Positions 24 through 23,100 of a DNA stretch of 64,000 nt are shown one piece after another. The stretch covers positions 1 to 64,000 of IMG/VR virus record IMGVR_UViG_3300035199_001057; one strand, 5' to 3'. Source of the DNA: a virus. The position numbers were made by a program, and so were the translations under genes. Each line of letters opens with the position of its first letter. The first letter of the stretch is position 1. The notes under the pieces were generated by a model. That model saw nothing but the letters and a program-made list of their open reading frames with translations, had not been told where the DNA came from and searched no databases.

Positions 24-548
24 CTACCGTTTTTTAAACTTGCGTCGTTTAGGGCTGTGGCGTTTAGGGCTGTGGCGTTTAGTACTGTGGCGTTTAGTAC
101 TGTGGCGTTTAGTACTGTGGCGTTTAGAGTGCTTGCGATATTTGATGGATTTATAGCTCTTATACTTTTTAGAGTGGTGGTTCCGCTTCTGATAATAATT
201 CCGCGGGCGCGTCTGACGCTTGTGGCGGTGAGGGTGCCAGAAGCCCCATCTAGAAGGGCGGTGGTAACGCCGATAACGTGGCGCGTGTCGCGGATAGGTG
301 CGCCAGACAGGATAGTATCGATAATAATTGTGGCTATAACTATAGGTGGACGATCCCACATACCGCCCAAATGGGGCATAATAATCAGCATAATCCTGGG
401 GGGACAGCCATACGGTGTTCGCATGGGAGGCAGGAATGTGTGAAATTACAACTACATCGTGTGGCGTAACATACACACCATCAATGTGGCAATCGGGAGT
501 GACATAAGCGCCCCCTCCCAGTAGTACAAATAAAATACAAAGTGACAT
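24..548 (-). CDS. Small basic exported-looking protein with a pentapeptide-repeat tail
   Basis: A 174-residue protein of unknown function. The ATG at 548 has a strong AAGGAG site 6-7 bases upstream. The first ~15 residues are hydrophobic and could be a signal peptide or short membrane anchor, although there is no standard lipobox. The middle is rich in Tyr, His, Arg and Pro. The C-terminal third is almost all Lys, Arg, His and Ser and contains five tandem [10 protein letters not shown] units, encoded by a 15-bp DNA repeat. Such a tail would be strongly cationic and could bind nucleic acid, lipopolysaccharide or peptidoglycan, but that is inference. It is the last gene of the minus-strand series, after a run of small membrane proteins. 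The export call is uncertain because the hydrophobic segment is short and has no basic N-region. Confidence 0.6.
51..125 (-). repeat. 15-bp tandem repeat, five copies, in frame
   Basis: Five head-to-tail 15-bp units. On the + strand the two units from 51 to 80 read agggctgtggcgttt and the three from 81 to 125 read agtactgtggcgttt. On the coding minus strand they encode KRHSP twice and KRHST three times. As the unit is a multiple of three, copy-number change would lengthen or shorten the tail without a frameshift. A more degenerate copy-like stretch flanks the array. Confidence 0.9.
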
Positions 549-2064: not shown

Positions 2065-3537
2065 CTAGTTCGATCCAGTGATCTGAGAAGGGTCTGAAGT
2101 GGTTGCCAAGTATGCCTGATTTTTCCGTAGAGAAATGGCCCCGGGCATCCCGAGAAAGAAAGGAACCTGGGCCGCGGCACCGGTGCACGCCAATTTATAA
2201 TTGGAGGACAAATTAAGATAAGAATTGATAGTAAAATCTGCGCTGAACTCGGGGTAAGTCTGTGACCCGTAAGCGCACCACTTAGAAGGGCTGGAAGTCG
2301 CTAGTTCAAAACACCCCAGGTCCGGAGGGTCTTGCCGGCTTGTGCCGCTAAGGTCTGCGCTGGTTAATCCCAAATAATTTACAGCGGTGCCGGCGCCGGT
2401 TACGACGGCAGTAGAAGTCAGGGTGTAATCAGCATATAGGTTTTTAAAATTGTCACTCGGATCTTCAAAAAGCGATATCACGCTGGCTGTTGTATATACT
2501 AGGTCGGTCGCCCCAAGGGACTGACTTGTGCCCGCAAAATTGCGATAAACCCCGTTGCCCAGAAGAGTTGAACTGCCATCTAGGCCCCCATAAAAGTTGT
2601 TAGTGGCTACGTCGGCTTGAATATAGGGGAAACTAAGGCCATCGCCTGGTGGAGGGATGCTCATGCTAACAATACAATTTTCAACGCGAGCGGCGTAGAT
2701 GCCCAATTGGCCCGTGTAAGTTGCCCCATCGTGTCTCACAAGAACTGTACAGAAACTTGCCGTACACCTGTTGTTCGTCCCTAGGGTTCCGTTGCTCGCA
2801 TTAATAGCGTTAATGGGCATATCGCCGGTCGCGCCGCTCAAGATGATCAAGCAATTATTAATTAAAGCATTTTGAGGATTATGGCTAAAATCGATTGCGC
2901 GGAAATTATTCGAACCTGTTAGTAATATGCGGCAGCTATCGACAATTGTCCACGCGTTTGTGCCGCCGGTGTCTCCAAGTCCCGTAATGCCGCCTCCCGC
3001 CGGTGCCTGACGTGGCGAGCCAGCGAGAGAGGCCGAAGCGTTAATCGTTACGTTGCGAATGTCGTAGGGGCGTCCGTTGCCTTTAATGACACCATCGGTG
3101 GCGCTAGCCCCTCCACACCCGGCAATAGTTATATTGTGAATTCCAGAGCCCGAGCCAAAAAGCTCGAAGGCCGACTTCTGAAAGAGAGCCGCCTTCCAGC
3201 TGCCAGTGGCGTTTGGCGTGCCAGGGGTTACTGTTATATCTTGCCCTTCAGAGGCGCTTATAATTATTCCATAATCATAACTTCCAAGCCATAGTTCTTG
3301 TTCAAAGCCATTGCCGGAATCATAATTAAAAAGGGGCATACCATAGGACGCAGAATATATCGTTGAGGCCCCGGAACTCTCGCTAAGGATAACATAGTGG
3401 GGTCCGGCGTCGCCAGAAAGAGTGCTTTGGATATCTGCCCGGGCAGTTTCAATGCTCTTATAGGGGCTTCCTGCAGAGCCATCGCCAGTGGCGTCATTAC
3501 CGGTCGTGACTGAAACGTATTTAGTGAGAATTGCCAT
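2065..3537 (-). CDS. Right-handed beta-helix protein, probable tail fibre or spike
   Basis: A 490-residue protein. The N-terminus (residues ~7-35) has the pattern Y-V-x-V-x-x-G-N-D-x-x-G-D-G-S-x-x-S-P-Y-K-S-I-E-x-A, typical of the first turns of pectate-lyase-like parallel beta-helices. The middle is a long series of short Gly, Asn and Ser-rich strands with motifs such as NALINNCLII and ARVENCIVS. Near residue 415 the stretch ending P-P-D-L-G-C-F-E matches the closing motif (DIGAFE type) of this fold. The last ~70 residues may be a separate capping or trimerisation region. The fold is common in phage tailspikes that bind or cut host polysaccharide, but no catalytic residues can be assigned. 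It lies apart from the tail block, directly after the recombination genes. Confidence 0.65.
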   Translation of the reverse strand: MAILTKYVSVTTGNDATGDGSAGSPYKSIETARADIQSTLSGDAGPHYVILSESSGASTIYSASYGMPLFNYDSGNGFEQELWLGSYDYGIIISASEGQDITVTPGTPNATGSWKAALFQKSAFELFGSGSGIHNITIAGCGGASATDGVIKGNGRPYDIRNVTINASASLAGSPRQAPAGGGITGLGDTGGTNAWTIVDSCRILLTGSNNFRAIDFSHNPQNALINNCLIILSGATGDMPINAINASNGTLGTNNRCTASFCTVLVRHDGATYTGQLGIYAARVENCIVSMSIPPPGDGLSFPYIQADVATNNFYGGLDGSSTLLGNGVYRNFAGTSQSLGATDLVYTTASVISLFEDPSDNFKNLYADYTLTSTAVVTGAGTAVNYLGLTSADLSGTSRQDPPDLGCFELATSSPSKWCAYGSQTYPEFSADFTINSYLNLSSNYKLACTGAAAQVPFFLGMPGAISLRKNQAYLATTSDPSQITGSN

Positions 3538-3609
3538 ACGATGTCTTTAAAATGATTTTACCTTCGATTCTGCTTATATCTAATTAGTTTTTAGTGTAAT
3601 AATCTTTAC

Positions 3610-6600
3610 TTAGAACTCGTTCACCAGAGCGTAACCATCACGCTTCTCTATTGTTATTTGCTTATCAACGCAGTCTTTTAAAGAGTCCAAGTGGGAAATA
3701 AGCAATACAGTTTTAAAGTAAGACTTAACCAATTCTAAAATAGAAATGAACCCCTCCATGTTATCTGCGTCTAGTGCGGTTCCTGGTTCGTCTAAAATAA
3801 ATAAATCGGACTTGGGCAAATTGGAAACTGTCAAGAGGGCCAAGCGGATCGCCATGGCGGCAATCGTCTTCTCTGCGCCGCTGCCCATTTCTAATGGACG
3901 CGGTTCATGGCGAGGGTGTTTAATATAAATCTTTAAGTGGCGGCCATCATTCTCAAAAAAGACCTCAAACTCTACGACATTTGCCAACACCTTCGCTATT
4001 TCATTGTTAATCACGGGAAGCTTCTTTTTGATAATGTCGTAAGATATGCCATTGCTATGGGTACATCTCATGAAAAGATCATAAGCAGCATATTCTTCGC
4101 GAAGGTTTAATAACTCCTCTTTTTGGTCCTCCAAGGAAACCACCTTCTGTTCGAGGGAGCCGTGCTCTTTATAAAGTTCTAGCAACTCTTGGTCGCACCC
4201 TTCCAACTCGTGGGACATGTTGGTCGTCTTCTCCAACAAGTCAGTCAATTGGCTGACAAGAGCTTCCTTTCCTTCGATTGTCTCTTTGTTTTCGTGATAT
4301 TCCTCTTCTTTTTGTTTTAGATTGTCAATTTCCTTTTCAAGAGAACTTTTTTGGGTTTCGTCACGCTCTACCTTAAGAGACAGGTTGAGGATCTCACTGT
4401 CCAAAGTTTGCTTTCTTTCCAACAGCGAATTATAATTGGCTTGGTATTCCTCTACCTTGTCAGGATCTAACTTTTCGATTTCATTAAGAATTTTTCCTTT
4501 TTTGCTCTCCAAGGATTCTTTGATGCTCTGGGTGATGCTGAGGTTGTCAACGGCCACGTACGCGTCTTTAATGAACTTACAGTGAGAATATTCAGATCCA
4601 CATGGAACCTCCTTCAAGAGGCTGCTCTTCTTCTCCTGATTTTTCCGCTGAATTTCCAAGCTGCCGATTTCATTAATTATGTCATCGAACTCTTCTCTTT
4701 TACTCTCGATAATCTCTTGCTTTTCTTTGACCTCTTCGATGTCGAAAACGTCTACAAATGAAGTTATCTTGGCAAGCAACGTATTGTCTTCTTTAAGCGC
4801 GTCGCCGTTTGTGGCAAGGTTTTTAATGATCCCTTCTAGCTCTTCAATGCGCTTCTCCAAGTTTTGATGAATTTCATCGACGTCGATGATTTCGGTGGGA
4901 ATTGCGTCAATACGCCTTGTTAAATCGCTTGTTTCGTCGGTGACCACTCGAAGGTCCTCTTTGAGCTTTGCGCACTTTTTAGCATGCCTCTTTGTCTCAT
5001 TTTCGTTATATAAGAGGTGCTTAGTGGCCTGGGTGATCTCTTCGTTAAAGTCGCGACCTTCCAGCCTCTTCAACGCACCGCGCAAATCGGAAGCATCATC
5101 TTTGGCTGCTCTGTGTTTGATATCAAACATTTCCAAGTCCAAGAACTTGGCTAAAATCTCCTTGCGCTTGGTTGACCCCTCGCTGATAAAAGCAAGAGAT
5201 CCAAGCTGAGAAGACATTGACGTAAGCAAAAAATCATCCATGGACCCGAAGTATTTGCGAATATTCTGGTCTGTCTCTGAGCGCGTTAGACCGTTAAGGC
5301 TTCTGGTTTCGTCCGTCACCTCATCGTAAACTTCGAAATTTAGGTCGGTCTTGGCTTCGAGTGTTTCCTCCCCCTTCAACTTTTTAATGTACTTTTCTGA
5401 TTCGCGGACAACCGAGTATTTTTTGTTCCCAATTGAAACAGTTACCTTGCCGCTCCCCGAATCTTTATTCTGATTAATAATATTGAGGTTCTTCCGCTCG
5501 TTCTTAGAAGTGCTATTGAAGAGAGTGTATAATACGCTATCCACGATGCTGGATTTTCCAGAAAAGTTTTTCCCAAAGACGCCCACAATTCCGGAAAACT
5601 TTGCAAAATCGATTCCATTATTCGGACCGTAATTAAAAAGATTGTCCCACTCAAGGTGTTCAAGTCGCCAATTGATATTGCGATGAATCTCTTCTTTATC
5701 TTCAATAAGAGAGTTATACTTGGAATTCAGTTTTAAAACACGTTCCATTAATTCGTCTTCAGGTTGGAAATCTTTTAGGTACTCTTTGATAAGTTTCTTT
5801 TGTACCACCGGATCCCGCAGGTTGTCCGCCTCGATGTTAGTGGCCATGGCTTCAACATTACCGCTGGTACCTGCTGCGCGGTTCAAAAATGTGATGTGCT
5901 CCGGCTTGAAGCGGTGCTTGGCGATCTCTACCGCCTTCTTCATAGCGTCCAGGGATAAGTTATTGTTGGAAACAAGGCGCAAACGGGCCTGCGGCGGGAC
6001 TGCCGTGTTCTTCGGGAGTCGACCTTTTGGTGTAAGCTCAATCGTTATAAAAGGCCGCGGGTTCTCTAAAACGTGATGTGTACACGAAAAAGTGTCCTTG
6101 TCCTCAATATCCCAAATCAAAAACCCTTTGTCGTTAGTTTCGCCGTGATTTTGCTGAACCGTCGACCCTGCGTATCGGACCTTTCCTTTGTGATCTAGAG
6201 TCTGGTTCGTCTTATGGATATCCCCAAGAAACGCATAGTCGTGTCCTTCAAAGATTGAAAGGTCGTCTTCACCGTGCTCCATGACCCAACCAAGATCAGT
6301 CCGACTGTTAGAAATAGCCCCATGATAAAGAGCAATATTAATCTTTCCAGCGTCGGAAGGTGAAACCCAATTATCACGATCAAAGACACTAAGAACATTA
6401 AGGCTAAAATCTCCATCTAAAACTTCCTCCCCGCTATCCTTTAACAAGAATAGATTTGGATTATCCAGCGCCTCTACAATAGGCGTGATGGCGTCCTGCC
6501 TGCTGCTGTTCTTGAGGTTGCCATCATGGTTCCCCAGAATTACATAAGTAGGGGCTATATCGGCTAACTGCGATAGAAAATGGGAACAAAGTTCTACGAA

Positions 6601-6765
6601 TTCTGGGGATAGTTGTGTCTTTGTATGCGCTATATCCCCGCAATGAATAATGTAATCTACTTTTTCTTCTTTAAGCATTTTATACAGCTTTTCAAAGACT
6701 TTTTTGTACTCGTAATGATATTTTAAATTTTTAATGTGTGTATCTGCAATGTGCGCAAATTTCAT
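3610..6765 (-). CDS. Fused Mre11/SbcD nuclease and Rad50/SbcC ATPase (T4 gp47-gp46 type)
   Basis: A 1051-residue recombination nuclease joining two proteins that are normally separate. Residues ~1-340 are an Mre11/gp47-type metallophosphatase with DTH (8-10), CGD, GNHD, LYHG and GDIH motifs. Residues ~375-1051 are a Rad50/gp46-type ABC ATPase. They include a Walker A with Lys404, a long coiled coil, a hook region with Cys722 and Cys729 spaced C-x6-C instead of the classical CxxC, a signature-like GSGAEK near residue 958, and Walker B ILDEP with Asp992 and Glu993. In T4 the complex resects DNA ends for recombination-dependent replication. I chose the ATG at 6765, with GGAG upstream, over a longer start at 6807 that would overlap the primase. 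The two enzymes would be made 1:1 from one message. Confidence 0.9.
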   Translation of the reverse strand: MKFAHIADTHIKNLKYHYEYKKVFEKLYKMLKEEKVDYIIHCGDIAHTKTQLSPEFVELCSHFLSQLADIAPTYVILGNHDGNLKNSSRQDAITPIVEALDNPNLFLLKDSGEEVLDGDFSLNVLSVFDRDNWVSPSDAGKINIALYHGAISNSRTDLGWVMEHGEDDLSIFEGHDYAFLGDIHKTNQTLDHKGKVRYAGSTVQQNHGETNDKGFLIWDIEDKDTFSCTHHVLENPRPFITIELTPKGRLPKNTAVPPQARLRLVSNNNLSLDAMKKAVEIAKHRFKPEHITFLNRAAGTSGNVEAMATNIEADNLRDPVVQKKLIKEYLKDFQPEDELMERVLKLNSKYNSLIEDKEEIHRNINWRLEHLEWDNLFNYGPNNGIDFAKFSGIVGVFGKNFSGKSSIVDSVLYTLFNSTSKNERKNLNIINQNKDSGSGKVTVSIGNKKYSVVRESEKYIKKLKGEETLEAKTDLNFEVYDEVTDETRSLNGLTRSETDQNIRKYFGSMDDFLLTSMSSQLGSLAFISEGSTKRKEILAKFLDLEMFDIKHRAAKDDASDLRGALKRLEGRDFNEEITQATKHLLYNENETKRHAKKCAKLKEDLRVVTDETSDLTRRIDAIPTEIIDVDEIHQNLEKRIEELEGIIKNLATNGDALKEDNTLLAKITSFVDVFDIEEVKEKQEIIESKREEFDDIINEIGSLEIQRKNQEKKSSLLKEVPCGSEYSHCKFIKDAYVAVDNLSITQSIKESLESKKGKILNEIEKLDPDKVEEYQANYNSLLERKQTLDSEILNLSLKVERDETQKSSLEKEIDNLKQKEEEYHENKETIEGKEALVSQLTDLLEKTTNMSHELEGCDQELLELYKEHGSLEQKVVSLEDQKEELLNLREEYAAYDLFMRCTHSNGISYDIIKKKLPVINNEIAKVLANVVEFEVFFENDGRHLKIYIKHPRHEPRPLEMGSGAEKTIAAMAIRLALLTVSNLPKSDLFILDEPGTALDADNMEGFISILELVKSYFKTVLLISHLDSLKDCVDKQITIEKRDGYALVNEF

Positions 6766-6775
6766 ATTTTCTCCA

Positions 6776-7699
6776 CTACTGCCACGATGAAAATATGAAA
6801 TTTTCAAAATTCATCGGCACTGCTGTCTCTCTAAGTTTTTCCACCTCAGTGTAGCTTAAAGAGCCAATATCCTCTATATTGGAAGTATCCATCTGGAAAA
6901 CCTCCAACCCATATTCTAACATATTTTTTATCACTCGTAAAGACTTTTGAAGCGCGTCTCCATCCAGCCCAACATACACCGGTGACTGCTTCTCCACGAG
7001 TTTAAAAAATAATCTAGATTTGACATTTAATGTTGAGCCCAAAATACAGATTGAATTGCGCGCTTTGAGCGCATCGAAGGGTCCTTCAACTAACATAACG
7101 GGCTCAGCCCAGTCAATCAAAAGCTCGTTAAAAACTACGTTTCTGGAGGCCGGTGGGTTTTTATACTTTAAGGTATCCCCGTTGTAGCTTCTTCCCACAA
7201 AATAGTTACAATACCCCTCCGCATCGAAGGAGGGTATAATTATACGATTACGATACGCGCCGGCGTGACAGAAGCCCAGTTTATAATATCGGATGTCTTC
7301 AAGCGTAATCCCGCGGGCCTTCAAATATCGGAGAGGGCGCTGAGCTTCATGAGGCAATTGAGATGCGCCTAGAAAAAGAAATTCCTCTGGTAAGCTAAGG
7401 CGCTGATTTTCTTGGGCTATTTCTTCTTTCTGAAAAAGGGTGTCCATGGTGGACATGTCGATTTGGTTTGTTATTTGTCGCCACTTTTGAAACAAGTGTG
7501 GATGACCAAATCGCCGTACGAGCCTTTGGAGGCTCTTCCCCTTGCTGTCGCAAACCCAGCACTTGTAAACGCCCAGGTTCAGGTTGATAGAGAGCTTGCG
7601 CTTGTAGTGCTTGCAATAGGGGCAGCTAAACAAATACTCGTCGCGAGATTTGTAATAAGGGCCAAGGACTTCTTTAAGTATGTTAAGCTTATCTTTCAT
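6776..7699 (-). CDS. DNA primase, DnaG/gp61-like
   Basis: A 307-residue primase that would make RNA primers for lagging-strand synthesis with a replicative helicase, not seen here. Residues 26-50 hold a zinc-binding domain with CPYC (26-29) and CWVC (47-50). A TOPRIM domain follows, with LVEGPFDALKA near residue 205 providing the conserved Glu, and YVGLDGDA about 40 residues later providing the acidic pair. It is about half the length of bacterial DnaG and close to T4 gp61, so the helicase-binding C-domain is probably reduced. The ATG at 7699 has no clear Shine-Dalgarno site. The next gene, the Mre11-Rad50 fusion, begins 10 bases downstream. Confidence 0.85.
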   Translation of the reverse strand: MKDKLNILKEVLGPYYKSRDEYLFSCPYCKHYKRKLSINLNLGVYKCWVCDSKGKSLQRLVRRFGHPHLFQKWRQITNQIDMSTMDTLFQKEEIAQENQRLSLPEEFLFLGASQLPHEAQRPLRYLKARGITLEDIRYYKLGFCHAGAYRNRIIIPSFDAEGYCNYFVGRSYNGDTLKYKNPPASRNVVFNELLIDWAEPVMLVEGPFDALKARNSICILGSTLNVKSRLFFKLVEKQSPVYVGLDGDALQKSLRVIKNMLEYGLEVFQMDTSNIEDIGSLSYTEVEKLRETAVPMNFENFIFSSWQ

Positions 7700-7737: not shown

Positions 7738-8295
7738 TTACACTATCACTTCGTCGTTGTCAAGCTTTTTTTTGGACTGTAGTAGTTTGAGGCCCGCCTT
7801 GGCGATCACGGTGGCGTCGGCGATATCAAAATACTTGGGTTTGGGGTTCCCATGAGAAGTATATTCTACTGCGAAGTTGGGCACGTGCTCAAGGAGCCAT
7901 GCGACGACCTGCTTTTTGGTATTCTGTCCTCTTTCTACTTTAATTCCCAATTGTTTTCGCGAATGGGCTGCGGTGATATGCTGTGGCTGTTTATCAAATA
8001 TTTCATATGCCAACCATGATACCACCCCATTGAACCTCTGGAGAGTGGCCATCGTATTGGCGGTGGAGCCTCCGGACTTAAAAAATATGAGGGGCTTCTC
8101 GATATAAATCTTTTCAATAGGATATTGTACCTTCAGCCGGGTAAGCTCCTCTTTAATGAATGATGCCTTGTCAAACTCATTTTTAAACTTCTTTTTGTTT
8201 CTCATGTCCCAAGCATCGCATGTTATAATCTCGCTCTCCGCGTCAATTACACAAAAGCCTGTGATGCTTGTGCTTATATCTAAACCCAATATCAT
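7738..8295 (-). CDS. RuvC-like Holliday junction resolvase
   Basis: A 185-residue RNase H-fold nuclease. Four acidic residues match the RuvC catalytic set: Asp6 in ILGLDISTS, Glu66 in IYIEKP, and Asp157 and Asp160 in FDIADA. The length fits RuvC (~170 residues). It would resolve branched DNA made by recombination, the role T4 gives to an unrelated enzyme, endonuclease VII (gp49). The start at 8295 is preceded by AGGA. It sits just upstream of the primase and the Mre11-Rad50 fusion, forming a recombination-replication trio. A related RNase H-fold nuclease with another substrate cannot be excluded. Confidence 0.8.
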   Translation of the reverse strand: MILGLDISTSITGFCVIDAESEIITCDAWDMRNKKKFKNEFDKASFIKEELTRLKVQYPIEKIYIEKPLIFFKSGGSTANTMATLQRFNGVVSWLAYEIFDKQPQHITAAHSRKQLGIKVERGQNTKKQVVAWLLEHVPNFAVEYTSHGNPKPKYFDIADATVIAKAGLKLLQSKKKLDNDEVIV

Positions 8296-11641: not shown

Positions 11642-11670
11642 ATTATACACACATTCCATGCTATTTTTAA
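11642..11670 (-). promoter_or_regulatory. Candidate sigma-70-type promoter
   Basis: On the minus strand, TTAAAA (11670-11665) and TATAAT (11647-11642) are separated by 17 bases. This matches the bacterial -35/-10 consensus at 4 of 6 and 6 of 6 positions. It lies in the gap upstream of the 333-residue structural gene, about 50 bases before its start. The region is AT-rich, so chance is a real alternative. No T4 late-promoter sequence (TATAAATA) is present here. Confidence 0.3.
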
Positions 11671-14600
11671 TCTAAACATAACTCATCAGAACTGTTGCCG
11701 AAATTGGGATTATTCGGCGCTTCGTCGGCGCAAGTTTGCGATGACGCTTCCCCGGGATGTTCACCGGGAGACTGGGCGTTAAATTTGTTAATTATCTTGT
11801 TAGCCATGTCTACATTAATGTCTATCTTTTTGCCTGTCTTTTTGGAAGTTACTCTGAACTTATATTTCTTGACCGGTCCGCCGTCTCGTCGCATATAAAG
11901 AACTTGGGCCGTATCGGCATTGTCCCCGACAATGCTCCGCAACGCATCACTAAGAGAGATTTTAAGATACTTTTTGAAAGGAATACTGGTTACCAGATCG
12001 CGCCTGGGAAATGAGTAGGGTTTCAAGACCATGTATGGCGGGAAGGATTCTTCTTTCACGATTCTTAGCTTAAAGATGCTCGTAGGGTTGGAAATGTTCC
12101 CATGGATATCGACAAAACGCGCAAAATAATAGTAATCGACGTTCGGTATCACCGAATCATTAAAGCCGCTTTGACGCGTCGAATCCAATGCGATCTTCTT
12201 CACTGTTGCCTCGTCGCGGAAGTCGGACCATTTTTCGGGTTTTCGGTGTGACCGATAAATCTCATACGTGCCTAGATCATTTTCAGTACGATAAAGAATA
12301 TGGCCCGGGGGGTTGTTGAGCGGCGCCTGGGCTATCTTATAATCGGCAACCTTGAGAATATCCTCAACAAAAATCTTGTCATTCGGCACCATAAGTCTTT
12401 CGCCGTAATTTTTATTTAACAATATCAATACTTTATTCGAAGACCCTTCATAAGGGTGAAAAGATACTTCTGGTGGAAGCGGCGGTTTATCAACAACTTT
12501 GGTTATCTCTTGCCCTTCGTAGGGCGTAGCTAACGAAAGAGTGTTGTGATATGGCGCACGAACAATTATTCCGTAAGGAATGAGATGGGTATCAAGTGGA
12601 TGGGGCAAGTCAAATTCGATGTATTTATTTAGCACGGTGTCGCTCTTACTTTCTGGGCTGGAGATCATCGAATTCGGGGGCATTCCGTAAGCGTGGGGGG
12701 CTTCTGAATGTCCGTATTTGTACGTGGCTCCCACAACCAAAGTGTGCGCAAATATTTCATATACATAATCGTGCCCATAAAAGACTTGAGTGTCCAAATA
12801 GGAAAGGGGGCTGTCTTGAGGGAAAGCGTTGGGAATGAAAATGCTTTGGACGGGGGTTCGATCACCTAGATCACCACGAAGCTTGCCGCTCTTTTTGTAT
12901 TTTGCGATCTCGTAGGCAATAACCTCAGTGTGACAACCTTCGCCCGCGTATATCTCCGGCATTGTAAGGGCTCTATCGCTCAAATACTTATTAAGCGGTG
13001 TTTTAAGGTTCTGTATTCCGAGATAATAGAGCGCCTTGCCCATCGATGGGCTAGCATTGATGGCTTCTGAGAGGTTTACATTCCTTTTATCGTCAATGTA
13101 CTGCCCAAAATGTTGGTAAAACTCGTCGACTGTATTTATATTAAGCATTTGACTTACATCAAAAAATTGAAGATCCAGCAACGAAAACTGAGAGTTAAAA
13201 GCGGCCGTGCTGGATGCGGCGCCTTGGTTCTCCAAAGGGAGGTCTGCCTCGAACTCCCGATGCATCACAAAGCGATGGGCGTTGGAATTTGCGATGGCGA
13301 TGTTGTTGGACTGGTTCGCTAACATGGTGGTGAACATATTAAAGTAAGTCTCGCCCTGTTCCTTAAGAACATTCAAAAATTGGGACGGTTGCGAATATCC
13401 TAAATCTATTTCCACGCCATATGGGAAAACCTTTTTGAGGGTTTTTGTAGACGCCATTAAATTCTCATCGTTTAGAATTATAGTTCTAAACCTCTCGGGT
13501 GTTGAAAATTCCGGGTTGTTCATGGGCACCGGTGATGTAGAGCCATAAGGCGCAAGGAGAGTACCTAAATTGGCCTGAATCTCCGATGGACTTACAGACT
13601 CGCTATTCTTAATAATATCAAAGTATTGCGACACAGTTACTTTGCTTTTTTCAAGATCGACCTCTTGACCAAGGGTAAACAAATCGCGAAAATAATTGCC
13701 GCTAAAGCTTTTATAGCCATTGTAGATATAAGGGCTTGGGAGTTGCCATTCTGAACTTACATTTTCTGGCATCTCCTCGTGGTCTTCGCGGTAACAATTA
13801 TAATAGGGCGCCACATTTACATAGCCGGTCATGACGTGCTCGTTTAATAAACCTTTAGGCTGTGCGGCGTCAAGGGTTGTCACAAAATAAGGATGATAAG
13901 GCCGTCGTTGTCCAAAGTCCGCTTTGCTGACCGAATATGTGAAAAACATTAGCTGGAGTACGGCCCACACCAACTCCATCTTTGTGGGGTCTTTCTCCTG
14001 GCCGGGTGCGGCGCCAAAAAGTGCGGCATGGAGCCATCCTTGCATTTCCTCGGAATGTGCTCCTAGATCAACAGATAAAAGCTTTAAAGAATCAAAAGGG
14101 AGTACGTCGAACGTGTCGAAGGTATCAACTTTCCAAGCTTCGAACGCCCCCGCTGTTAATCTATTGACGCTTATCTTGTTCATTTTTTTGAACTCGGCCA
14201 TCAGATTCTTCACGACTTCGACGCGTGAGTTGTAAGCGGTCATATCAAAATGATCAACACCAAGAACGGTTTCTCCGGATTTTGTTTGAAAAGTAGAAGT
14301 CTTAGGCGAAAGCGCGAAGTAATTTTCAAAGGAGAAGTTCATGCCCAACGCTTCAAAATTTGAATTAATTGTTTCAGCAAGTTTGGTCAAATCAGTACAA
14401 AAATCAGGACCTGGGGTTCGTCCAATAAGGAGCTTTCTATACGTTTCTACGTTGTTGACCGCGGCGGGAGGAGCCATCAAATGCCACTTGCCGCTGCCGG
14501 CCGTGGTGGCGGCAAACCTTCTGCCTGTGAGAAAGCGAAAAAGATCGGGCAGGAATTTATAAGAATAGCGCTGGGTGCTCCAAAATTTGCGATGAAACGC

Positions 14601-14753
14601 GTGTTTCATTCCAGTGTTTACGAAGGCGGTCTCGTTAATGATGTTTGTTCTAATCGACTTTTCTCCAAGGCCTTCGAGTCTCACATCGTTGGTGGGGGTT
14701 GTCGAAAGGTCGATTTTATCAAATCCATCAATAAGAGTGTATTTTTTTACCAT
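11667..14753 (-). CDS. Large virion protein with a fibronectin-like region
   Basis: A 1028-residue protein without a named family match. Residues ~840-925 resemble a fibronectin type III-like beta sandwich: a strand with YEIYRSHRK, then NVDYYYFARFVDIHGNIS and a closing strand before KLRIVKEE. Extracellular and virion proteins often use such domains for surface contact. The long N-terminal part is mixed alpha/beta and has no catalytic motif I can see. The C-terminal ~70 residues are polar and low in complexity. The next gene downstream is 73 bases away, and the start lies 8 bases after the 134-residue gene. A peripheral baseplate or fibre-attachment role is inferred from position only. Confidence 0.6.
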   Translation of the reverse strand: MVKKYTLIDGFDKIDLSTTPTNDVRLEGLGEKSIRTNIINETAFVNTGMKHAFHRKFWSTQRYSYKFLPDLFRFLTGRRFAATTAGSGKWHLMAPPAAVNNVETYRKLLIGRTPGPDFCTDLTKLAETINSNFEALGMNFSFENYFALSPKTSTFQTKSGETVLGVDHFDMTAYNSRVEVVKNLMAEFKKMNKISVNRLTAGAFEAWKVDTFDTFDVLPFDSLKLLSVDLGAHSEEMQGWLHAALFGAAPGQEKDPTKMELVWAVLQLMFFTYSVSKADFGQRRPYHPYFVTTLDAAQPKGLLNEHVMTGYVNVAPYYNCYREDHEEMPENVSSEWQLPSPYIYNGYKSFSGNYFRDLFTLGQEVDLEKSKVTVSQYFDIIKNSESVSPSEIQANLGTLLAPYGSTSPVPMNNPEFSTPERFRTIILNDENLMASTKTLKKVFPYGVEIDLGYSQPSQFLNVLKEQGETYFNMFTTMLANQSNNIAIANSNAHRFVMHREFEADLPLENQGAASSTAAFNSQFSLLDLQFFDVSQMLNINTVDEFYQHFGQYIDDKRNVNLSEAINASPSMGKALYYLGIQNLKTPLNKYLSDRALTMPEIYAGEGCHTEVIAYEIAKYKKSGKLRGDLGDRTPVQSIFIPNAFPQDSPLSYLDTQVFYGHDYVYEIFAHTLVVGATYKYGHSEAPHAYGMPPNSMISSPESKSDTVLNKYIEFDLPHPLDTHLIPYGIIVRAPYHNTLSLATPYEGQEITKVVDKPPLPPEVSFHPYEGSSNKVLILLNKNYGERLMVPNDKIFVEDILKVADYKIAQAPLNNPPGHILYRTENDLGTYEIYRSHRKPEKWSDFRDEATVKKIALDSTRQSGFNDSVIPNVDYYYFARFVDIHGNISNPTSIFKLRIVKEESFPPYMVLKPYSFPRRDLVTSIPFKKYLKISLSDALRSIVGDNADTAQVLYMRRDGGPVKKYKFRVTSKKTGKKIDINVDMANKIINKFNAQSPGEHPGEASSQTCADEAPNNPNFGNSSDELCLD

Positions 14754-15203: not shown

Positions 15204-18200
15204 TCAGGGCCTTTTACTAGTGTCCCCGCCTCCGCGCGGATCAAAATTACGGCCTCCGCGAGCGTGATCTTTGTCAACATCATAAGCTGGTAGAAACCAC
15301 GCGGGCTCATCGGCTATTTTAGTATTTCCAATGGCGCCGGCGAGGGCCGGACTTGGCGAAAACTTCGGGGCCGTTTCTATGCCACTACTAGGCAAAGATG
15401 TGTCTATGGTTGCCGTAATACCTACGGGGGGTGGTGCTGGGACTGCTCCCGGCGCCGTTTTCATTATGTAAAAAGTTTCATTATAATTGCTATAGCCGCC
15501 AAACAAATCAGTAAACTTTTTGTCGATGAGCCGATTGTCCCGGCAAAGCTCTATTTTACAATAAAGCATTTGCCCCACACCTAGAGAGTTAAGCTTCGCG
15601 CGACTTAAGGGCGCCCAGAGCTTGGATTTGATTTGTGTATTATAGTGGAAGGCGCTGGGCGTTTTTTCCGATCCGCCGCCGGTGGCTGCTTCGAATCCTT
15701 GTAAATAGCGTACACGACCGAATAGGGACATGTAAGCAATGTAAGCTTGATAATTGTCCAATCTCAAGTTCCCTTTGGAATCATACAATTGGTCGTAAAA
15801 TAAGGTGGACAGTTTCTCTTTACCCAAGAGGCCACTTGCGACCAAGGCGAGTAGGTTAAGGGGAGCGGGCATCTCCAGGTTGGTGGAAATAGCAGTAAAA
15901 TCTTCATCCGGAAAGTTGGGAGATATAGCGCCAAAATAGGCTGGGCTACTTTTTACATCAAATAAATCCATATCGCGATAAGTTTGCAAATTATCAGAAA
16001 AGATCATAGAGAGAAGGCTTTTGGCCACCTTTAGGGGATATTTTTCGTAGGGCCCTCCTTGCCATTCATATTGAGGGTTGTAAACAGACCCAAAGGGGTC
16101 TTGGGTGAATACGTTACTGGGGTCCGTTCCGAAAGACGAGTTGAACCCTCCGCCGGCTGGCGTAACCGGTATGAACTTTTGGCCAAAATTATCATCGAAG
16201 GCCTCGCTGTCCCACCAACTCCAATGCTTTGGGCCGTACGCTGATTTGTCTCCCCAGAATAGATTGTCCACCACTGTGCCGCGCAAGGGGTCATTTCCCA
16301 ACTCCATGCGTCGCTCTATATCGGCGGCGGTACCCAATTCAAATTTCACTCCATAGAAAGAAAGTACTTCGGGTATAGATATGTTTTGATTTTTATCCGT
16401 GTGGCGAGTTAGCACACGTTTACGCATGCTTTGGTAGCTTTTTTTAATAAAATCGTCGAGAGCTGTGGCGTTAAGTTCGCTCTTGACATTAGCCAGGTCC
16501 AGGCTTAAGATTCCCAAATAAGGCATATAAGAGTCACCGCCGGTTGGCTTTGCCGAACCAGGCTTTAAGAGGGCCGTAACATTTTGTGAAAGTGCTTGTT
16601 GGTAGTTTGCGGCCGCCACTGTCTTTAAGTTTCGATTTGGCGCTGCTTGGGGGAAGTTCTTGCCGTCTAGCCAGTCAAAATGATTTCTCATGTCATAGAG
16701 GTTGAGAGTCTTTTGGAAAGCTTTATGAAAATGGATAACCGCAGCATTCTCGCCGGTTGTACCCTTGGCCGCGGCAAAATTGCCCTGGCCCTTTAAATAA
16801 TCCGTGTAGCTAAAATTACTTTTTTTCGTAACGTGGGAAAGACCGAAGAGGCTAAGCAGCTTCACTAATTTATCCTCTACTCCGCGTAAAAGAGCGGTCA
16901 CCCTGAGAAGAGAAGATGGCGTCGCTGTGTCGAGCCTTGTTGACGATCGTATAAAGCTCGCCACATTCGATATGGTCGAATGGGGTACGTTATAAGAAGA
17001 AAGCGGTTCGGGATTGCCACTGCCGTCAAAATTCAACATTGTTAGCAACGTAGCCAGACTTTCTGGGCCATTGGGATCTCCCCCGAGTAAAGCGTCGCCC
17101 GATAGATTGCTGCCCTGTAATTTAAAACCGCTCACTAAACTTGCCGGCATGTTGTCGATCAAGTTAAACGTAAAAAATGAGGGGTCATTATTTGCTTTGG
17201 CAAGAAAGGCCGCATCGAATTTATCCGTGTATCTATTATACGCGTCCACCATTTTATTGGTGGCGTAGGTGGTGGTGTGCGCGCCATAAATCGAAGCGAA
17301 GGAAGAGTGAGCCTTAAGGGGGGAATTGCTTACCACTTTAAGAGATCCTTTATGTATTACCTCATCCAGGTCCAGCAGGATTTTTTTCAACGCCTGTAGT
17401 CTGCTTACCAAATATGGGATAAAAGGGTCTATAAATTTAAACTCGATCTCGTACGCATACTCATTGTAGTCATAGTCAAGAGTGTTCACTTCACCATCTC
17501 GAAACTCATAATAATCAACAAAGGGGCTGCTGCTCTCGACCTGGAGTCCGACTAACTTGCGAAATACATGTCCCTTGCCTATGGGATTGCCATACCCATC
17601 GGTTTTCCCACTATCATCCCCATAGTTGGCGTTAGTTGACCCCAGGAGCAGAACCTTTTCCCCCGTTGCAACGTTGCGCCTGTATATGTTAAAGTTATAA
17701 GGCGCTACCTGTGCCACAAAGGGGAAGATGGCATTAGAATCTAAAGCGCCGAACAGCTCCAATAGCGGTGCGAATGTGGATTGAGTTTTGAGAAGTTCCA
17801 AGCGATCTAGGGCAAACCACAAATTGACGCGGCCGCGTTGGCGGCCATGAATTCCCTTTGTCTTTATTAGAGAGTAGTCAACCTCCGAGACAATCCCGGG
17901 ATTATCATTATAGGAATCAACTGCTTTTTTCTTATCCTCCCCTAAAAAAGTAGTCTCCGTAGCTTGAGTCAAGAAAGCTTGAAAATTTTGAGAATCGTAA
18001 ACAAACATATTCTCCAGTTTGCCAATGATGCGGTTGTCGACAATCTTGTCATTGCTTTTGTATTCAATGTTTAAATAAGGGTGAGGATCATTTCCATGCG
18101 AGGCGCCTCCCATATAGCGGTATACGCCGTTAACCTTGTGACGGTGGACTGGGCCACACCAAATTTCGCTCGGCTTGCCATAGTTAAGCATGACGAATTC

Positions 18201-18965
18201 ACTATCGGTGCTCGGCACTATCTCGTCAATTGGAAGACCTGTCAATGGATTTTTTTCAAACTTCGAAGTGACAAGTTCATTTTGGTTAATAGGATATTCG
18301 TTCCCTTTGACAGAATATGTATCCCCAATTGTAAAATATGTCGTTTGAACGGGGATGGTGTCGCCGCTAAAAATAATCTCTCCGGTGAAGGCGCTATTGT
18401 CTGCGCTTGGCATTGGCCCCGTCACACCCGCGGTTGGCATAAGACAAAAAACGCAAGCCAAAAAAGATGGGGGACTTTCAACTATAGAATATTTATATAA
18501 ATGTTGAACCTTGATGGGGACACTTATTATAGGAGCGTCTAAGTCATAAGAGACATATGCGCTGAGGTCTTTGGTCAAAAGATGAGGTGCTTGATCTTGG
18601 GTGTGCAACTCCCCGGGAAGGCTCATAAAATAATCGTGCTTATCTTCCGCCAAAAGAAAATCGGCCAAGCGGGACTCCGCTGTTATAAACTTATAACGCA
18701 GAACATGGGTGTTTATAACTTTCGTTGCTTCTATAAGGGGGATGTTGGTACAATGAGCCTTTGCTGCGTCTCCGACGGGATAAAGGGATTTAAGAGCTAC
18801 ATTGAATGTAAACTTGAGAGCCTCATGTTGCAAGGGCTCCGCGGCCTGCGCAGCTTTTTCATAATAAAGATCGACGTAGCCAGGCTGTTTAACCCCATTG
18901 TTGGTGCCATTTTCAATCAAGATCTTACTGATATAAGGCTTTGGTAGATAGTCTAACCCGTTCAT
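15204..18965 (-). CDS. Large virion structural protein
   Basis: A 1253-residue protein with no family I can name. The ATG at 18965 overlaps the previous stop as TAATG. An in-frame GTG at 18971 is also possible because GGAGG lies 4 bases before it. Around residues ~415-520 there is a beta-sandwich-like region with YNFNIYRRN and later DYYEFRDGE and YAYEIEFKF, reminiscent of the fibronectin-like region in the 1028-residue protein. The C-terminus ends in a Gly, Arg and Asp-rich tail. Size, lack of enzyme motifs and position inside the tail block indicate a virion protein, probably peripheral baseplate or fibre. Its true partner is unknown. Confidence 0.6.
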   Translation of the reverse strand: MNGLDYLPKPYISKILIENGTNNGVKQPGYVDLYYEKAAQAAEPLQHEALKFTFNVALKSLYPVGDAAKAHCTNIPLIEATKVINTHVLRYKFITAESRLADFLLAEDKHDYFMSLPGELHTQDQAPHLLTKDLSAYVSYDLDAPIISVPIKVQHLYKYSIVESPPSFLACVFCLMPTAGVTGPMPSADNSAFTGEIIFSGDTIPVQTTYFTIGDTYSVKGNEYPINQNELVTSKFEKNPLTGLPIDEIVPSTDSEFVMLNYGKPSEIWCGPVHRHKVNGVYRYMGGASHGNDPHPYLNIEYKSNDKIVDNRIIGKLENMFVYDSQNFQAFLTQATETTFLGEDKKKAVDSYNDNPGIVSEVDYSLIKTKGIHGRQRGRVNLWFALDRLELLKTQSTFAPLLELFGALDSNAIFPFVAQVAPYNFNIYRRNVATGEKVLLLGSTNANYGDDSGKTDGYGNPIGKGHVFRKLVGLQVESSSPFVDYYEFRDGEVNTLDYDYNEYAYEIEFKFIDPFIPYLVSRLQALKKILLDLDEVIHKGSLKVVSNSPLKAHSSFASIYGAHTTTYATNKMVDAYNRYTDKFDAAFLAKANNDPSFFTFNLIDNMPASLVSGFKLQGSNLSGDALLGGDPNGPESLATLLTMLNFDGSGNPEPLSSYNVPHSTISNVASFIRSSTRLDTATPSSLLRVTALLRGVEDKLVKLLSLFGLSHVTKKSNFSYTDYLKGQGNFAAAKGTTGENAAVIHFHKAFQKTLNLYDMRNHFDWLDGKNFPQAAPNRNLKTVAAANYQQALSQNVTALLKPGSAKPTGGDSYMPYLGILSLDLANVKSELNATALDDFIKKSYQSMRKRVLTRHTDKNQNISIPEVLSFYGVKFELGTAADIERRMELGNDPLRGTVVDNLFWGDKSAYGPKHWSWWDSEAFDDNFGQKFIPVTPAGGGFNSSFGTDPSNVFTQDPFGSVYNPQYEWQGGPYEKYPLKVAKSLLSMIFSDNLQTYRDMDLFDVKSSPAYFGAISPNFPDEDFTAISTNLEMPAPLNLLALVASGLLGKEKLSTLFYDQLYDSKGNLRLDNYQAYIAYMSLFGRVRYLQGFEAATGGGSEKTPSAFHYNTQIKSKLWAPLSRAKLNSLGVGQMLYCKIELCRDNRLIDKKFTDLFGGYSNYNETFYIMKTAPGAVPAPPPVGITATIDTSLPSSGIETAPKFSPSPALAGAIGNTKIADEPAWFLPAYDVDKDHARGGRNFDPRGGGDTSKRP

Positions 18966-20107
18966 TAGCACACATCCTCCGCATCAACTGGCGGTAAGTT
19001 ATATGGATTGCCTTGTTGTTGGTCCACAATGGCCAAGTCGTCGCACTCAAAGACATCCGTAGTGTAAATATTTTTCGTTTTAAGTTTTCGTTTATTATTA
19101 ATATTATAGCATGCCAGACCGCGGTCTATTTCGGTGTCGACCTGAACGTCAAACACGCTCTCCACGGCGTCGGTTGCCAGGTTCTCGCCCATTATTAGCC
19201 CGGAGGGTCCATAAAACACCATCTTCTGGATTCCTTGTAAGTCGTCGGTTTCGGTTATTTCGTAAACTTCTAAGAGAAAGTTCTCATTCTCGAAATCTAC
19301 ATTACCTTCTTCTAGAGAGATAAAAAGATAGTCTTTCTCGACCACAATGGAGCCCGTGGGCAACCCCAACTCGAAAATAAGCTCCTCATAGGCAGCCATA
19401 TGCTCAAAAATGGCGCCGTCTTGGCCCGTGTAGCCGGGGGCATAGATGTCGATATCAGGAGCGTCAGGTGCTAATGTTATTTCGGATATTTTGGCCAGCG
19501 ACGGCTCCGTTTCAAAAATGTTCTCTTCGGGTGGCACCTTGTAGACCGTATCCTTCAGCGTGGAGTCTAATTGGGGGATAGGAGCGACCACGCCGTTCTT
19601 CTGATAACTTTTAGACGTACCCGATAAAATTCCATTATAATAAAGCACATTCCAGTTGGGGGCTTTGTTATTGAAATATCGCTTGGTGCCAAGAAAATTG
19701 GCCAGTAGCTTTTCGGATTCGGCAAAGTCCTCATCAATCTTTAGCTTCCCAGACTTGTATTCAGCTAGCTCCTGAATATCCTGTAAATCTTCTCCAAGAT
19801 TAAACAGGTCCTTTAAATTTTTATCCAGAGCGTATGCGGCTAAATCTCCCGTATTGAAGACGGTACGATCAGCGCCTACTTTTGAATTAATAGTTTCTAA
19901 GCGAGGGGTTTGCTCTTGGATTCTTTGCTCCACAAGCCACTGACTTTCAGCCACGGTGCTTCCGGATATCCAGCGCGTGTCGTACATAACACCGTCGTCT
20001 GAAAATGTATAGTAAACTGGTTCAAACTCTCCAATGGAAAGCAGTTGGCGGCCGAAGCGAGTTAGCTTTAAATTTATTACGTCTTGTTTTTTATCAAAAA
20101 ATTCCAT
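18965..20107 (-). CDS. Virion structural protein with N-terminal docking-like module
   Basis: A 380-residue acidic protein. Its N-terminus (residues ~10-45: INLKLTRFGRQLLSIGEF, then Y-Y-T-F-S-D-D-G-V-M-Y-D) aligns with the start of the 333-residue protein at 10592-11593: both carry L-T-x2-G-R-x2-L, then F, then F-x-D-D-x3-Y. I recognise it as a module on structural proteins of large T4-like phages. The rest is rich in Asp and Glu without enzyme motifs. Its ATG is two bases past the stop of the 3424-residue gene, and its own stop overlaps the next start as TAATG. Coupled translation with its neighbours suggests parts of one assembly. Confidence 0.65.
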   Translation of the reverse strand: MEFFDKKQDVINLKLTRFGRQLLSIGEFEPVYYTFSDDGVMYDTRWISGSTVAESQWLVEQRIQEQTPRLETINSKVGADRTVFNTGDLAAYALDKNLKDLFNLGEDLQDIQELAEYKSGKLKIDEDFAESEKLLANFLGTKRYFNNKAPNWNVLYYNGILSGTSKSYQKNGVVAPIPQLDSTLKDTVYKVPPEENIFETEPSLAKISEITLAPDAPDIDIYAPGYTGQDGAIFEHMAAYEELIFELGLPTGSIVVEKDYLFISLEEGNVDFENENFLLEVYEITETDDLQGIQKMVFYGPSGLIMGENLATDAVESVFDVQVDTEIDRGLACYNINNKRKLKTKNIYTTDVFECDDLAIVDQQQGNPYNLPPVDAEDVC

Positions 20108-20109
20108 CG

Positions 20110-23100
20110 TTAGTCGCCTTCATCCGAACCTAAATCTGCTAAATTGCCAATAATTTTAGACACCATAGTCGCCTTTTTAACCTCATCCGAATCGAGGATT
20201 TGTGCCATCAGTCCCGCCGGGTTGAGAGTCTGGGGGTTAAACGTCACGGTGGAAGTAATCTTCGCTAGCTCCACCAAAGAGAAGAAGTCATGAGGCCAGT
20301 TATAAGAATACGCAAAATCATGGGGGAATTCTACCCCCTCTCTGAGAAATTGTATTCCGTTGATCTCTTGACGGCCGGCGATGTTCGCATAATTGTTTCG
20401 GCCTCGCTTTTTAACTTTAAAAACGGCCCATCTTGTCTTGTCCTCATCAAAAACATCTAAGAAATAAGGGTGTGGACCGAAGTAGGCGTCCAGGTCGTCC
20501 TTTTTGTCCTGAGCGTCCTTCAAGGCGTCAAGATCGAGCCATCCACCGGTACCGGGATTCGGGCCAAGTGGACTGGGTACGTGAGCCTGTCCTGGGGTCG
20601 TTGGAAGCACGTGTGTAATTACATCGCTTGTTGCTTTTATCGCTCTTTTGGCAATCTTAGGAGCGGTGTTTTGCCACATATTTCGGAGATCTTCTTCGTC
20701 CAGACTGGTCTCAAATTCCCACATGTACATAGTAAAAGGGTCAATATCGCTATTGTGTAAAAAGTCTAAATGAGGCGGAATAACATATTTTCGCATGAGG
20801 GATAGTAGCTTGTAAATCGCAGGATCCACTCCTTCGGGCGCCTCCGGGGGGATCTCTCGCCAGTAGTCCTTAATAAGATCAGTATATTCATATTCTGAGA
20901 AGGAGGGCGACTGAAAGACGACTTTATCTTTAAAAATTGGGCCGGTGGTGGCGGAGGAATATTTAGAGTCGGGGCCGGCATTTCCGAATGGCTCAACGCT
21001 ATTTTTTGCAGCGTCAACGGCGGAAGGGCTCATCCTGTAAAGCTCTGTCTCGGTTATAGCCGCATTTAAATCCCCCACCACTTTGAAGGGGATCGCCACA
21101 ATGGCTTCCGACAGCGTTCGCGACTTTGGCATTACACCTATCTTCTTGGGGTTCTGTACTCCTTTGGTGAAACCCAAGATAAATGATAGAGATTTGTACT
21201 CGTTGGCGTTGTTAAAATGTGGGGATCCTTCTGGGCGCTCGGTTTGCAACCAGTGCGAGGGGTCCTGGACCTCCATCCATAGGCCATTGCCTGATACCGG
21301 TGGGGTACCCATCTGATGCCACATTCCGCGGGCGACGCTTCCGCTAAGTCCAGCGGCCGATCCTAGGCGTGAATTGCTAAAAGGCTCTGTTGGGGCCGTT
21401 GTTGAGAAATCCAACACCGGGCACTCAAACTTGGAGTGTATCACAAGGCGCCTATCCGCAGGATTGTTTTCGTTCGTAAAGATCCAATTTCCGCCTTCGG
21501 AGCCGGCATCCTTCGGCGCTTGGCCAAAGTTCAAAGACGCGGAAACTTGCATCGCGTTGGTCTGCGCCGTTCCATCCCACAGAGTAGTTTGCGATGAACT
21601 CAGAGGGGTGAACGTGGGGAGCGAACTGTAAGACATTGTGAGATTATTTAAAACATCTTCTATTAAAAGACCACTTTGCGCTTCCAGGCCGATACTCATG
21701 CGGCAAGACGCGTATCCATCGTAATAAGGCGGGGTATAGGGCTCAAAGCTGGCGATGTTCCGATAAACGTAAGCTCCGGCGCCGCTGGACGCTTCAAAGA
21801 TGACGTACCCACTCCGAACGGGAGGACCAAAAGATGAACCATATAAATGAGAATCAATCGAATGGCCTGTGTTCGCGCGACTATACATTATGAAACTAGA
21901 GGAGTTCACAAACAGGCTTGAAGCAGACGGAGCGAGCAGCGACGCGGTGGCTTCGCAGTAACTCTTCATGTCGACAATATTAGTCGAGTTACGCAAGACA
22001 ATGTCCATAACATACACCCCAGAAACCGGAATATTAACCGTTTCTGGGAGGGTGTAGGCCGGATAAATGCCCGTGGGGCGTCCCGAGTCAATAAAAAAGT
22101 TGGTGACCTCCGAAAAAAAGTTATTTGCCGCAAACTTATAAAGAGGAGATTGCGCCTGCTTGATAGAGGCTGTAGAGTTCAGCCGCGTATCTAAAAACGG
22201 GTCTGTGTCCTTGATCGTAAGCGTCGCCGGGCCATTGACAATTTGCTCGAAGTTAACTCGTTGAGTAAAGGATCCGCTAATAGAATGACCCCACACATCC
22301 GAACTTGCTGGCCAGCCGCGTAGGGGCTCGATAGCAGAAGGAGAGTGAATAGGGTAGTCCACTGCTATTCCTGATTTTATGGTATTATAAAAGATGCCCG
22401 GTGCGTAGAACGGCTGCATTGCTGTCCGCCAACTCTGCTGGCCCCCCGCCATTGGGCCTGCGGCTCCTGTGGAACTGAGAGCTTTGGAGTTATAATATGA
22501 AGCTGAAAACAAGGACGCCAGTTGAACACTTCTTTGCGCCGGATAAAAGCCGTCATAGGGCACAAGCTTCATCAGAGCTTCACACCCTAGACTTAATAGC
22601 GGGGTCCGACTGCGAGCTTTCTTTTCTACCAGCTGTTCCACCGTTTGGGTCACCGGCCGGTTATCGTTATAATCCTTTTTAATCAATTTAAAATGCCGAT
22701 AGAAATCAGAAAACGCATAACGATTCAAGAATTTATCTGTCTCCGTTAAGTGGTTATACGATGCCCCCGTCAATTCAAGAAGTCCATCCTGAATGCGCAG
22801 AGCGTATTGGGCTGCGCTGACGGTGGCTGTATCGGTTTTAAAGTTGTCTTTTGTTGGAAAAGTCAAGACCCAGTTCTTATCAGCCGCGGCGCTATAGTAG
22901 CTTGCCATCTTCTCCGAAATTCTAAACTCCGGAAGAATGGTGCCTTCCTGCATTATGCGCGTTCCCTCTTCCGCATAATCATTATATGAATCATAAAAAG
23001 GAGTAATATCTTTACCCGTGCTGCTCGTAACTTCCCACAAAGTATCACCTACTGAGGCGCTATAGCGAACGGGAAGAGGCATTTTACGTAACCCATAGTT

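What the first reader, a model, noticed from the sequence alone, without database searches (positions are those of the whole stretch)
3610..6765. Mre11 and Rad50 fused into one polypeptide with a C-x6-C hook
T4 gp47 and gp46, like SbcD and SbcC, are separate proteins. Here a 1051-residue frame has all nuclease motifs followed by a full Rad50 ATPase. The hook cysteines (722 and 729) are six residues apart rather than two, so zinc-mediated dimerisation may differ.
Basis: seen in the sequence. Interest (0 to 1): 0.64.

Follow-up and report, generated by a model that had tools for sequence, protein, structure and literature searches.

The report
Fused Mre11-Rad50 with switchable hook
A marine virus makes its DNA-end-processing nuclease and motor as one protein instead of two, an arrangement already described in 2011, but the metal-binding 'hook' at its tip is of an uncommon type that related viruses have swapped back and forth with the standard type many times.

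Summary
One uninterrupted 1051-aa frame on the MINUS strand (6765 to 3610) joins an Mre11/SbcD-like nuclease (res 1-~357) to a complete Rad50/SbcC ATPase (res ~365-1051). AlphaFold2 puts C722 and C729 at the apex loop (720-729) of the coiled coil.

The fusion itself is not new. Yoshida et al. 2011 (PMC3175470) described it in Mimivirus R555 and reported abundant homologues in viral fractions of marine metagenomes. It also occurs in cultured jumbo phages (pT24, PTm1, PAU, MA9V-1).

The hook is the interesting part. C-x6-C is this clade's norm (113 of 136 distinct proteins; C-x7-C 9), while 14 carry a canonical CxxC hook. On head-domain trees, CxxC needs about 11 changes (9 forced by well-supported branches), and a single CxxC clade is rejected (AU p=1.65e-6). 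Only about 20-30 apex residues differ in type. Searches of the held literature found no report of this. Zinc binding by C-x6-C is inferred, not shown. 'All nuclease motifs' needs one correction: GHxH is GDIH.

The parts
3610..6765 (-). Mre11-Rad50 (SbcD-SbcC) fusion gene, 1051 aa, ATG at 6765, stop at 3610-3612
   Evidence: upstream in-frame TTG at 6807 is less likely as start, since relatives align from this ATG
5878..6765 (-). Mre11/SbcD-like nuclease and capping domain, res 1-296
   Evidence: Pfam Metallophos; matches S. aureus SbcD 7dog at Z 22.3, 275 aligned, rmsd 3.5
6220..6222 (-). D182: Asp in place of the first His of the GHxH metal motif (GDIH), invariant in 81 proteins
   Evidence: same replacement reported for Mimivirus R555
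5695..5811 (-). predicted helix-loop-helix, res 319-357, in the place of the Mre11 Rad50-binding domain; about 7-residue linker follows
   Evidence: AlphaFold2 model; role inferred from T. maritima Mre11-Rad50 as discussed in PMC3175470
5143..5673 (-). Rad50 ATPase N-terminal half, res 365-541, Walker A GKNFSGKS at 398-405
   Evidence: Z 29.3 to E. coli SbcC head 7yzo_D over both halves
4609..5133 (-). ascending coiled coil, res 545-719
   Evidence: AlphaFold2 model
4579..4608 (-). apex loop (hook), res 720-729, with C722 (4600-4602) and C729 (4579-4581), C-x6-C
4060..4578 (-). descending coiled coil, res 730-902
   Evidence: AlphaFold2 model
3613..4047 (-). Rad50 ATPase C-terminal half, res 907-1051: signature GSGAEK, Walker B/D-loop LFILDEPGTALD, H-loop LLISH
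6776..7699 (-). DNA primase gene directly upstream (overlaps the frame's upstream extension)
   Evidence: PHROG_47, E 2.8e-46; found in 71 of 84 loci with the fusion
7738..8295 (-). RuvC-like Holliday junction resolvase gene
   Evidence: PHROG_159, E 2.2e-12; found in 63 of 84 loci

Best explanation
This is the virus's recombination and DNA-end-processing nuclease, the counterpart of T4 gp46/gp47 and bacterial SbcCD, made as a single chain. Two chains would pair through the Mre11 domains and the ATP-bound Rad50 heads, so each complex has the usual 2+2 makeup with fixed stoichiometry (inferred). ATP-gated heads open the Mn-dependent nuclease to DNA ends and hairpins and make 3' single strands for recombination-dependent replication; the neighbouring primase and RuvC resolvase fit this. 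At the far end of the coiled coil, the C-x6-C loop (PCGxxYxxC) takes the place of the CxxC zinc knuckle. It most likely still supplies two thiolates per chain to a shared Zn(II) that joins two apices, with a longer loop and hence a different dimer interface. Relatives exchange this roughly 20-30-residue apex for a CxxC type. Shown by computation: domains, apex position, conservation, repeated hook switching. Inferred: nuclease activity, zinc binding, dimer geometry, role in replication.
For: Both halves match by profile and by predicted fold: SbcC/Rad50 heads at Z 27-29, S. aureus SbcD at Z 22.3; the best full-length structural matches are fused viral DNA repair exonucleases. The apex position of C722/C729 is seen in the model. 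C729 is invariant and C722 over 90% conserved, in an island of 60-70% identity within coils at about 15-30%. There is only one SbcC-like (apart from one marginal E 2.8e-4 hit in G006) and one SbcD-like match per record, in the same frame, in 11 long relatives. Primase and RuvC neighbours recur. CxxC and C-x6-C forms occupy the same apex slot with the helices unchanged: loop 720-729 versus 719-732.
Against: No biochemistry exists for this clade. GHxH is GDIH, so metal binding or cleavage chemistry could differ. The models have pTM 0.47-0.49, so domain arrangement and dimer contacts are not predicted. The hook loop has only moderate confidence (pLDDT about 62-73) and zinc was not modelled.
Confidence: 0.8

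Rival explanations
1. The hook switches type because the apex fixes self-recognition: two hook types cannot pair, so phages sharing a cell avoid mixed complexes, or escape a host or rival factor that targets one type. The apex is then a diversified specificity cassette moved by recombination. (An addition to the best explanation rather than its opposite.)
For: Two discrete, non-intermediate types; 9-11 changes on head trees; sister pairs with heads over 80-90% identical differ in hook type; the exchanged stretch is only about 20-30 residues.
Against: No functional data. Recombination and independent change were not separated by a breakpoint test. Zinc supply or neutral drift could also explain it.
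Confidence: 0.3
2. The C-x6-C loop is not a zinc hook. The cysteines form a disulphide or bind nothing, and apex pairing is by the coiled coil alone.
For: Spacing differs from the CxxC of the canonical unfused phage proteins read here; zinc was not tested.
Against: Both cysteines are kept while the coil drifts; the form alternates with true CxxC at the same place; a disulphide is not favoured in the reducing bacterial cytoplasm (general knowledge).
Confidence: 0.15
3. The single frame is an assembly or sequencing artefact that joins two genes.
For: Unfused gp46/gp47 is the rule in T4-like phages.
Against: 80 loci with no stop through the junction, 575+ related stretches, cultured phages with the same fusion, one predicted fold throughout.
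Confidence: 0.01
4. The protein has lost nuclease activity (GHxH to GDIH) and acts only as an ATP-driven DNA tether.
For: An invariant change at a position that is a metal ligand in Pyrococcus Mre11.
Against: All other motif residues are invariant in 81 proteins; Asp is a good Mn ligand; the same GDIH is found in fused proteins of pT24, PTm1, MA9V-1, Mel-JY01 and R555, which suggests a kept alternative ligand rather than decay.
Confidence: 0.08

Closest known systems
Mimivirus R555 and its marine metagenome homologues (Mre11/Rad50 fusions; Yoshida, Claverie, Ogata 2011, PMC3175470)
   Same: Same domain order, short linker, GDxxH and GDIH replacements; homologues abundant in marine viral fractions, judged there to be probably phage; some sit beside phage primase genes
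   Different: R555 is longer (1351 aa). The paper does not mention the hook at all, so hook type was not compared.
Fused proteins of jumbo phages (Tenacibaculum pT24, PTm1, PTm5; Chryseobacterium MA9V-1; Sphingomonas PAU) and Microcystis phage Mel-JY01
   Same: One-chain Mre11-Rad50; GDIH in all those read except PAU
   Different: Those read have CxxC hooks; pT24, PTm1, MA9V-1 and PAU are longer (1270-1326 aa); identity to the window protein only about 30% for Mel-JY01, the others not found with it by tblastn
Phage T4 gp46/gp47
   Same: Same two activities and presumed role in recombination-dependent replication
   Different: Two genes; gp46 hook is C288-x2-C291
E. coli / archaeal SbcCD, Mre11-Rad50
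   Same: Fold of both halves
   Different: Two chains, much longer coils, CxxC hook (general knowledge for coil length and hook)
Moorella phage MTATph1 SbcC (unfused) and gut phage contig MT837445 (fused)
   Same: Long-spaced apex cysteines: C-x7-C and C-x6-C
   Different: Distant; MTATph1 keeps separate SbcD and SbcC genes

Membership tests
Mre11/Rad50 (SbcD/SbcC) fusion proteins | Mre11-like phosphoesterase and Rad50-like ATPase in one frame, in that order | tested here: met
Mre11/SbcD nuclease | Phosphoesterase motifs DxH, GD, GNH, H, GHxH | tested here: inconclusive
   Four motifs kept and invariant; GHxH is GDIH. Fold met: Z 22.3 to S. aureus SbcD.
Mre11/SbcD nuclease | Mn-dependent endo/exonuclease activity | not testable with these tools
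   needs purified protein
Rad50/SbcC ATPase | Walker A, signature, Walker B, D- and H-loops in two halves split by a long coiled coil | tested here: met
   Z 29.3 to SbcC head
Rad50/SbcC ATPase with canonical zinc hook | CxxC at the coil apex | tested here: not met
   C722-x6-C729 instead, at the apex; CxxC present in 14 of 136 relatives
Rad50/SbcC ATPase with canonical zinc hook | Hook binds zinc and joins two apices | not testable with these tools
   inferred from two conserved apex cysteines
R555-type clade of fusions | GDxxH and GDIH replacements in the nuclease | tested here: met
   H47 and D182 invariant; R555 description. No joint tree with R555 was made.

The most novel reading that the evidence does not exclude
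The apex of Rad50-type proteins is an exchangeable specificity cassette. In this abundant marine virus lineage, two discrete hook types (PCG-x5-C and DPxCxxC) with different dimer chemistry or pairing rules replace each other again and again by local recombination under selection.
Probability: 0.35. Interest if true: 0.6.

Novelty: new variant of a known kind. Interest (0 to 1): 0.38.

Why it matters
The zinc hook is usually treated as a fixed CxxC element. A one-chain Mre11-Rad50 of about 1050 aa, with short coils and naturally alternating hook types on nearly identical heads, is a ready-made system to ask what hook spacing does: sister proteins such as L014/L024 or L141/L147 have heads over 90% identical but different hooks. 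It would show whether the hook fixes partner choice, zinc affinity or complex stability. The fusion itself is prior knowledge and adds only a very well-populated clade.

Tried and rejected
Frameshift or assembly artefact: rejected. Fusion as novel: rejected (PMC3175470). A second, separate SbcC or SbcD in the same genomes: none found beyond one marginal 14.9-bit hit in G006. Hook type carried by exchange of the whole coil: not supported in general. L053, L129 and L139 keep coils nearest to their long-hook sisters, though in L024/L028 the whole coil also groups by hook type, so tract length varies. A short hook peptide searched by tblastn in phages gave only chance-level hits. A scan for MTATph1 SbcC relatives in IMG/VR found none. 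The fusion was not found on plasmids. Literature searches for unusual hooks found nothing relevant; the library is incomplete and the search used phrases unlikely to match. Note: the hook labels printed are one too high (scripting slip); one search gives the corrected spacing. Small-sample caution: the two comparison bins with the highest head identity (88-97%) hold only 5 different-hook pairs.

Full report
OBSERVATION. The reading frame lies on the minus strand, from ATG at 6765 to the stop at 3610-3612, 1051 aa without a stop. The N-terminal part matches Metallophos and the PHROG SbcD family, the C-terminal part SMC_N/AAA_23 and the PHROG SbcC family.

IS THE FUSION REAL? Yes. The 80 best of the first set are full-length and open, with no internal stop. 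In 11 long relatives (155-204 kb) there is one SbcC-like and one SbcD-like match, lying in the same frame; one record has an additional marginal SbcC-profile hit. The window's own record of 89 kb has one copy.

STRUCTURE. AlphaFold2 on a 60-sequence alignment (mean pLDDT 82, pTM 0.49) gives: nuclease and capping domain; a helix-loop-helix at 319-357; a linker of about 7 residues; the Rad50 N-half from 365; a helix rising to 719; a loop at 720-729 holding both cysteines; a helix falling from 730 to 902; and the ATPase C-half. VIA-align gives Z 29.3 (350 residues, rmsd 3.2) to the E. coli SbcC head 7yzo_D, and Z 22.3 (275 residues, rmsd 3.5) to S. aureus SbcD 7dog. Best full-length matches among predicted viral structures are fused DNA repair exonucleases of giant viruses and Tenacibaculum phages. 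The pTM is low, so domain arrangement is not claimed.

MOTIFS. Phosphoesterase motifs: DTH, GDIAH, GNHD, YHG, GDIH. D8, H10, D44, N79, H80, H148, D182 and H184 are invariant in 81 proteins. D182 replaces the first His of GHxH; T4 gp47 has GHFH. The same replacement is described for Mimivirus R555 as Asp242 for His206 of P. furiosus Mre11, together with GDxxH. ATPase motifs are complete.

PRIOR KNOWLEDGE. Yoshida, Claverie and Ogata (2011, PMC3175470) reported Mre11/Rad50 fusions in Mimivirus R555 and twelve other proteins, including Bacillus phage 0305phi8-36 and plasmid-borne proteins. They noted that the order suits the known complex, and that R555 homologues are very abundant in marine viral fractions and are probably phage-borne, some with phage primase genes on the same scaffolds. 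The present protein fits that description. Fused proteins are also in cultured phages pT24, PTm1, PTm5, MA9V-1, MA9V-2, PAU and Mel-JY01. So the fusion is ordinary for this kind. The 2011 paper does not discuss the hook.

THE HOOK. Among 136 distinct clade members plus Mel-JY01: C-x6-C 113, C-x7-C 9, CxxC 15 including Mel-JY01; after removing proteins over 95% identical, 89, 9 and 13 of 111. Canonical unfused phage SbcC/gp46 proteins read here have CxxC: T4, Cr30, S-SRM01, BM15, VspSw_1, G, Stab22, Lpa804, phiSHEF13, KEY, AG-345-L05. The exception is Moorella phage MTATph1, C-x7-C. Fused jumbo phage proteins pT24, PTm1, MA9V-1 and PAU have CxxC; a distant fused gut phage protein (MT837445) has C-x6-C. 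Long-spaced hooks are therefore neither confined to this clade nor tied to fusion.

HOOK SWITCHING. On trees built from the heads only, without the coil and hook, CxxC needs 11 changes, at least 9 forced by well-supported branches (FastTree, 137 rows, IQ-TREE, 58 rows). A single CxxC clade is rejected by an AU test (p 1.65e-6, 40 rows), and the nuclease alone or the ATPase alone still needs 9 or 10 changes. Sister pairs L014/L024, L016/L028, L141/L147 and L155/L070 have supported common branches yet different hooks. CxxC hooks from eight lineages share 60-70% identity over about 30 residues while the coil on both sides is at about 10-30%; the long-hook sisters show the same pattern. The CxxC motif HxYDPxCxxC(C/N/S)xNxFVK(D/E)A is too specific to have arisen many times, so local exchange, or old polymorphism re-sorted by recombination, is the likely cause (inference). 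The tract is often only the hook (L053, L129, L139), but in L024/L028 more of the coil follows. AlphaFold2 of L024 shows the same helices with a loop at 719-732 in place of 720-729.

HOW IT LIKELY WORKS. One chain provides nuclease, ATPase and tether; two chains make the complex. The gene sits next to a primase and near a RuvC resolvase; the primase is detected in 71 and the resolvase in 63 of 84 loci. This fits end resection for recombination-dependent replication, as for T4 gp46/47. The hook probably still binds zinc with two thiolates per chain, but this is inferred. Why two types coexist is open; partner specificity is the most interesting option and is testable.

VERDICT. Observation confirmed. 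Fusion: known. Hook: a variant not found described in the held literature, with good evidence for repeated type switching. Interest moderate.

Noticed in passing
L083 (LR756508.1 huge phage, 120583-128739), around 2564-3638: The fused gene is split by about 1.07 kb between the parts matching window residues 185 and 198; the insert region holds a 305-aa Cys-rich ORF (start 2665), perhaps an intron or intein with a homing endonuclease.
   Followed up: no
L094 (CP070664.1, candidate division WOR-3 MAG chromosome, 902217-912091): A RuvC, primase and truncated fusion frame (698 aa, similarity ends at window residue 627) lie in a 2.8 Mb bacterial MAG contig: a phage remnant or an assembly/binning join.
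   Followed up: partly
window 20110-30384 and 34579-44253, minus strand: Two giant frames of 3424 and 3224 aa; the first has LamG-like (Laminin_G_3) domains, the second no Pfam match.
   Followed up: partly
window 8306-63772, minus strand: Most large frames scanned (for example 11667-14753, 15204-18971, 44270-47955) have no PHROG match, although relatives of this virus are abundant in IMG/VR; no close cultured isolate appeared in the phage collection.
   Followed up: partly
window 24-548, minus strand: A 174-aa frame ends in a tandem run of [14 protein letters not shown]-type repeats.
   Followed up: no
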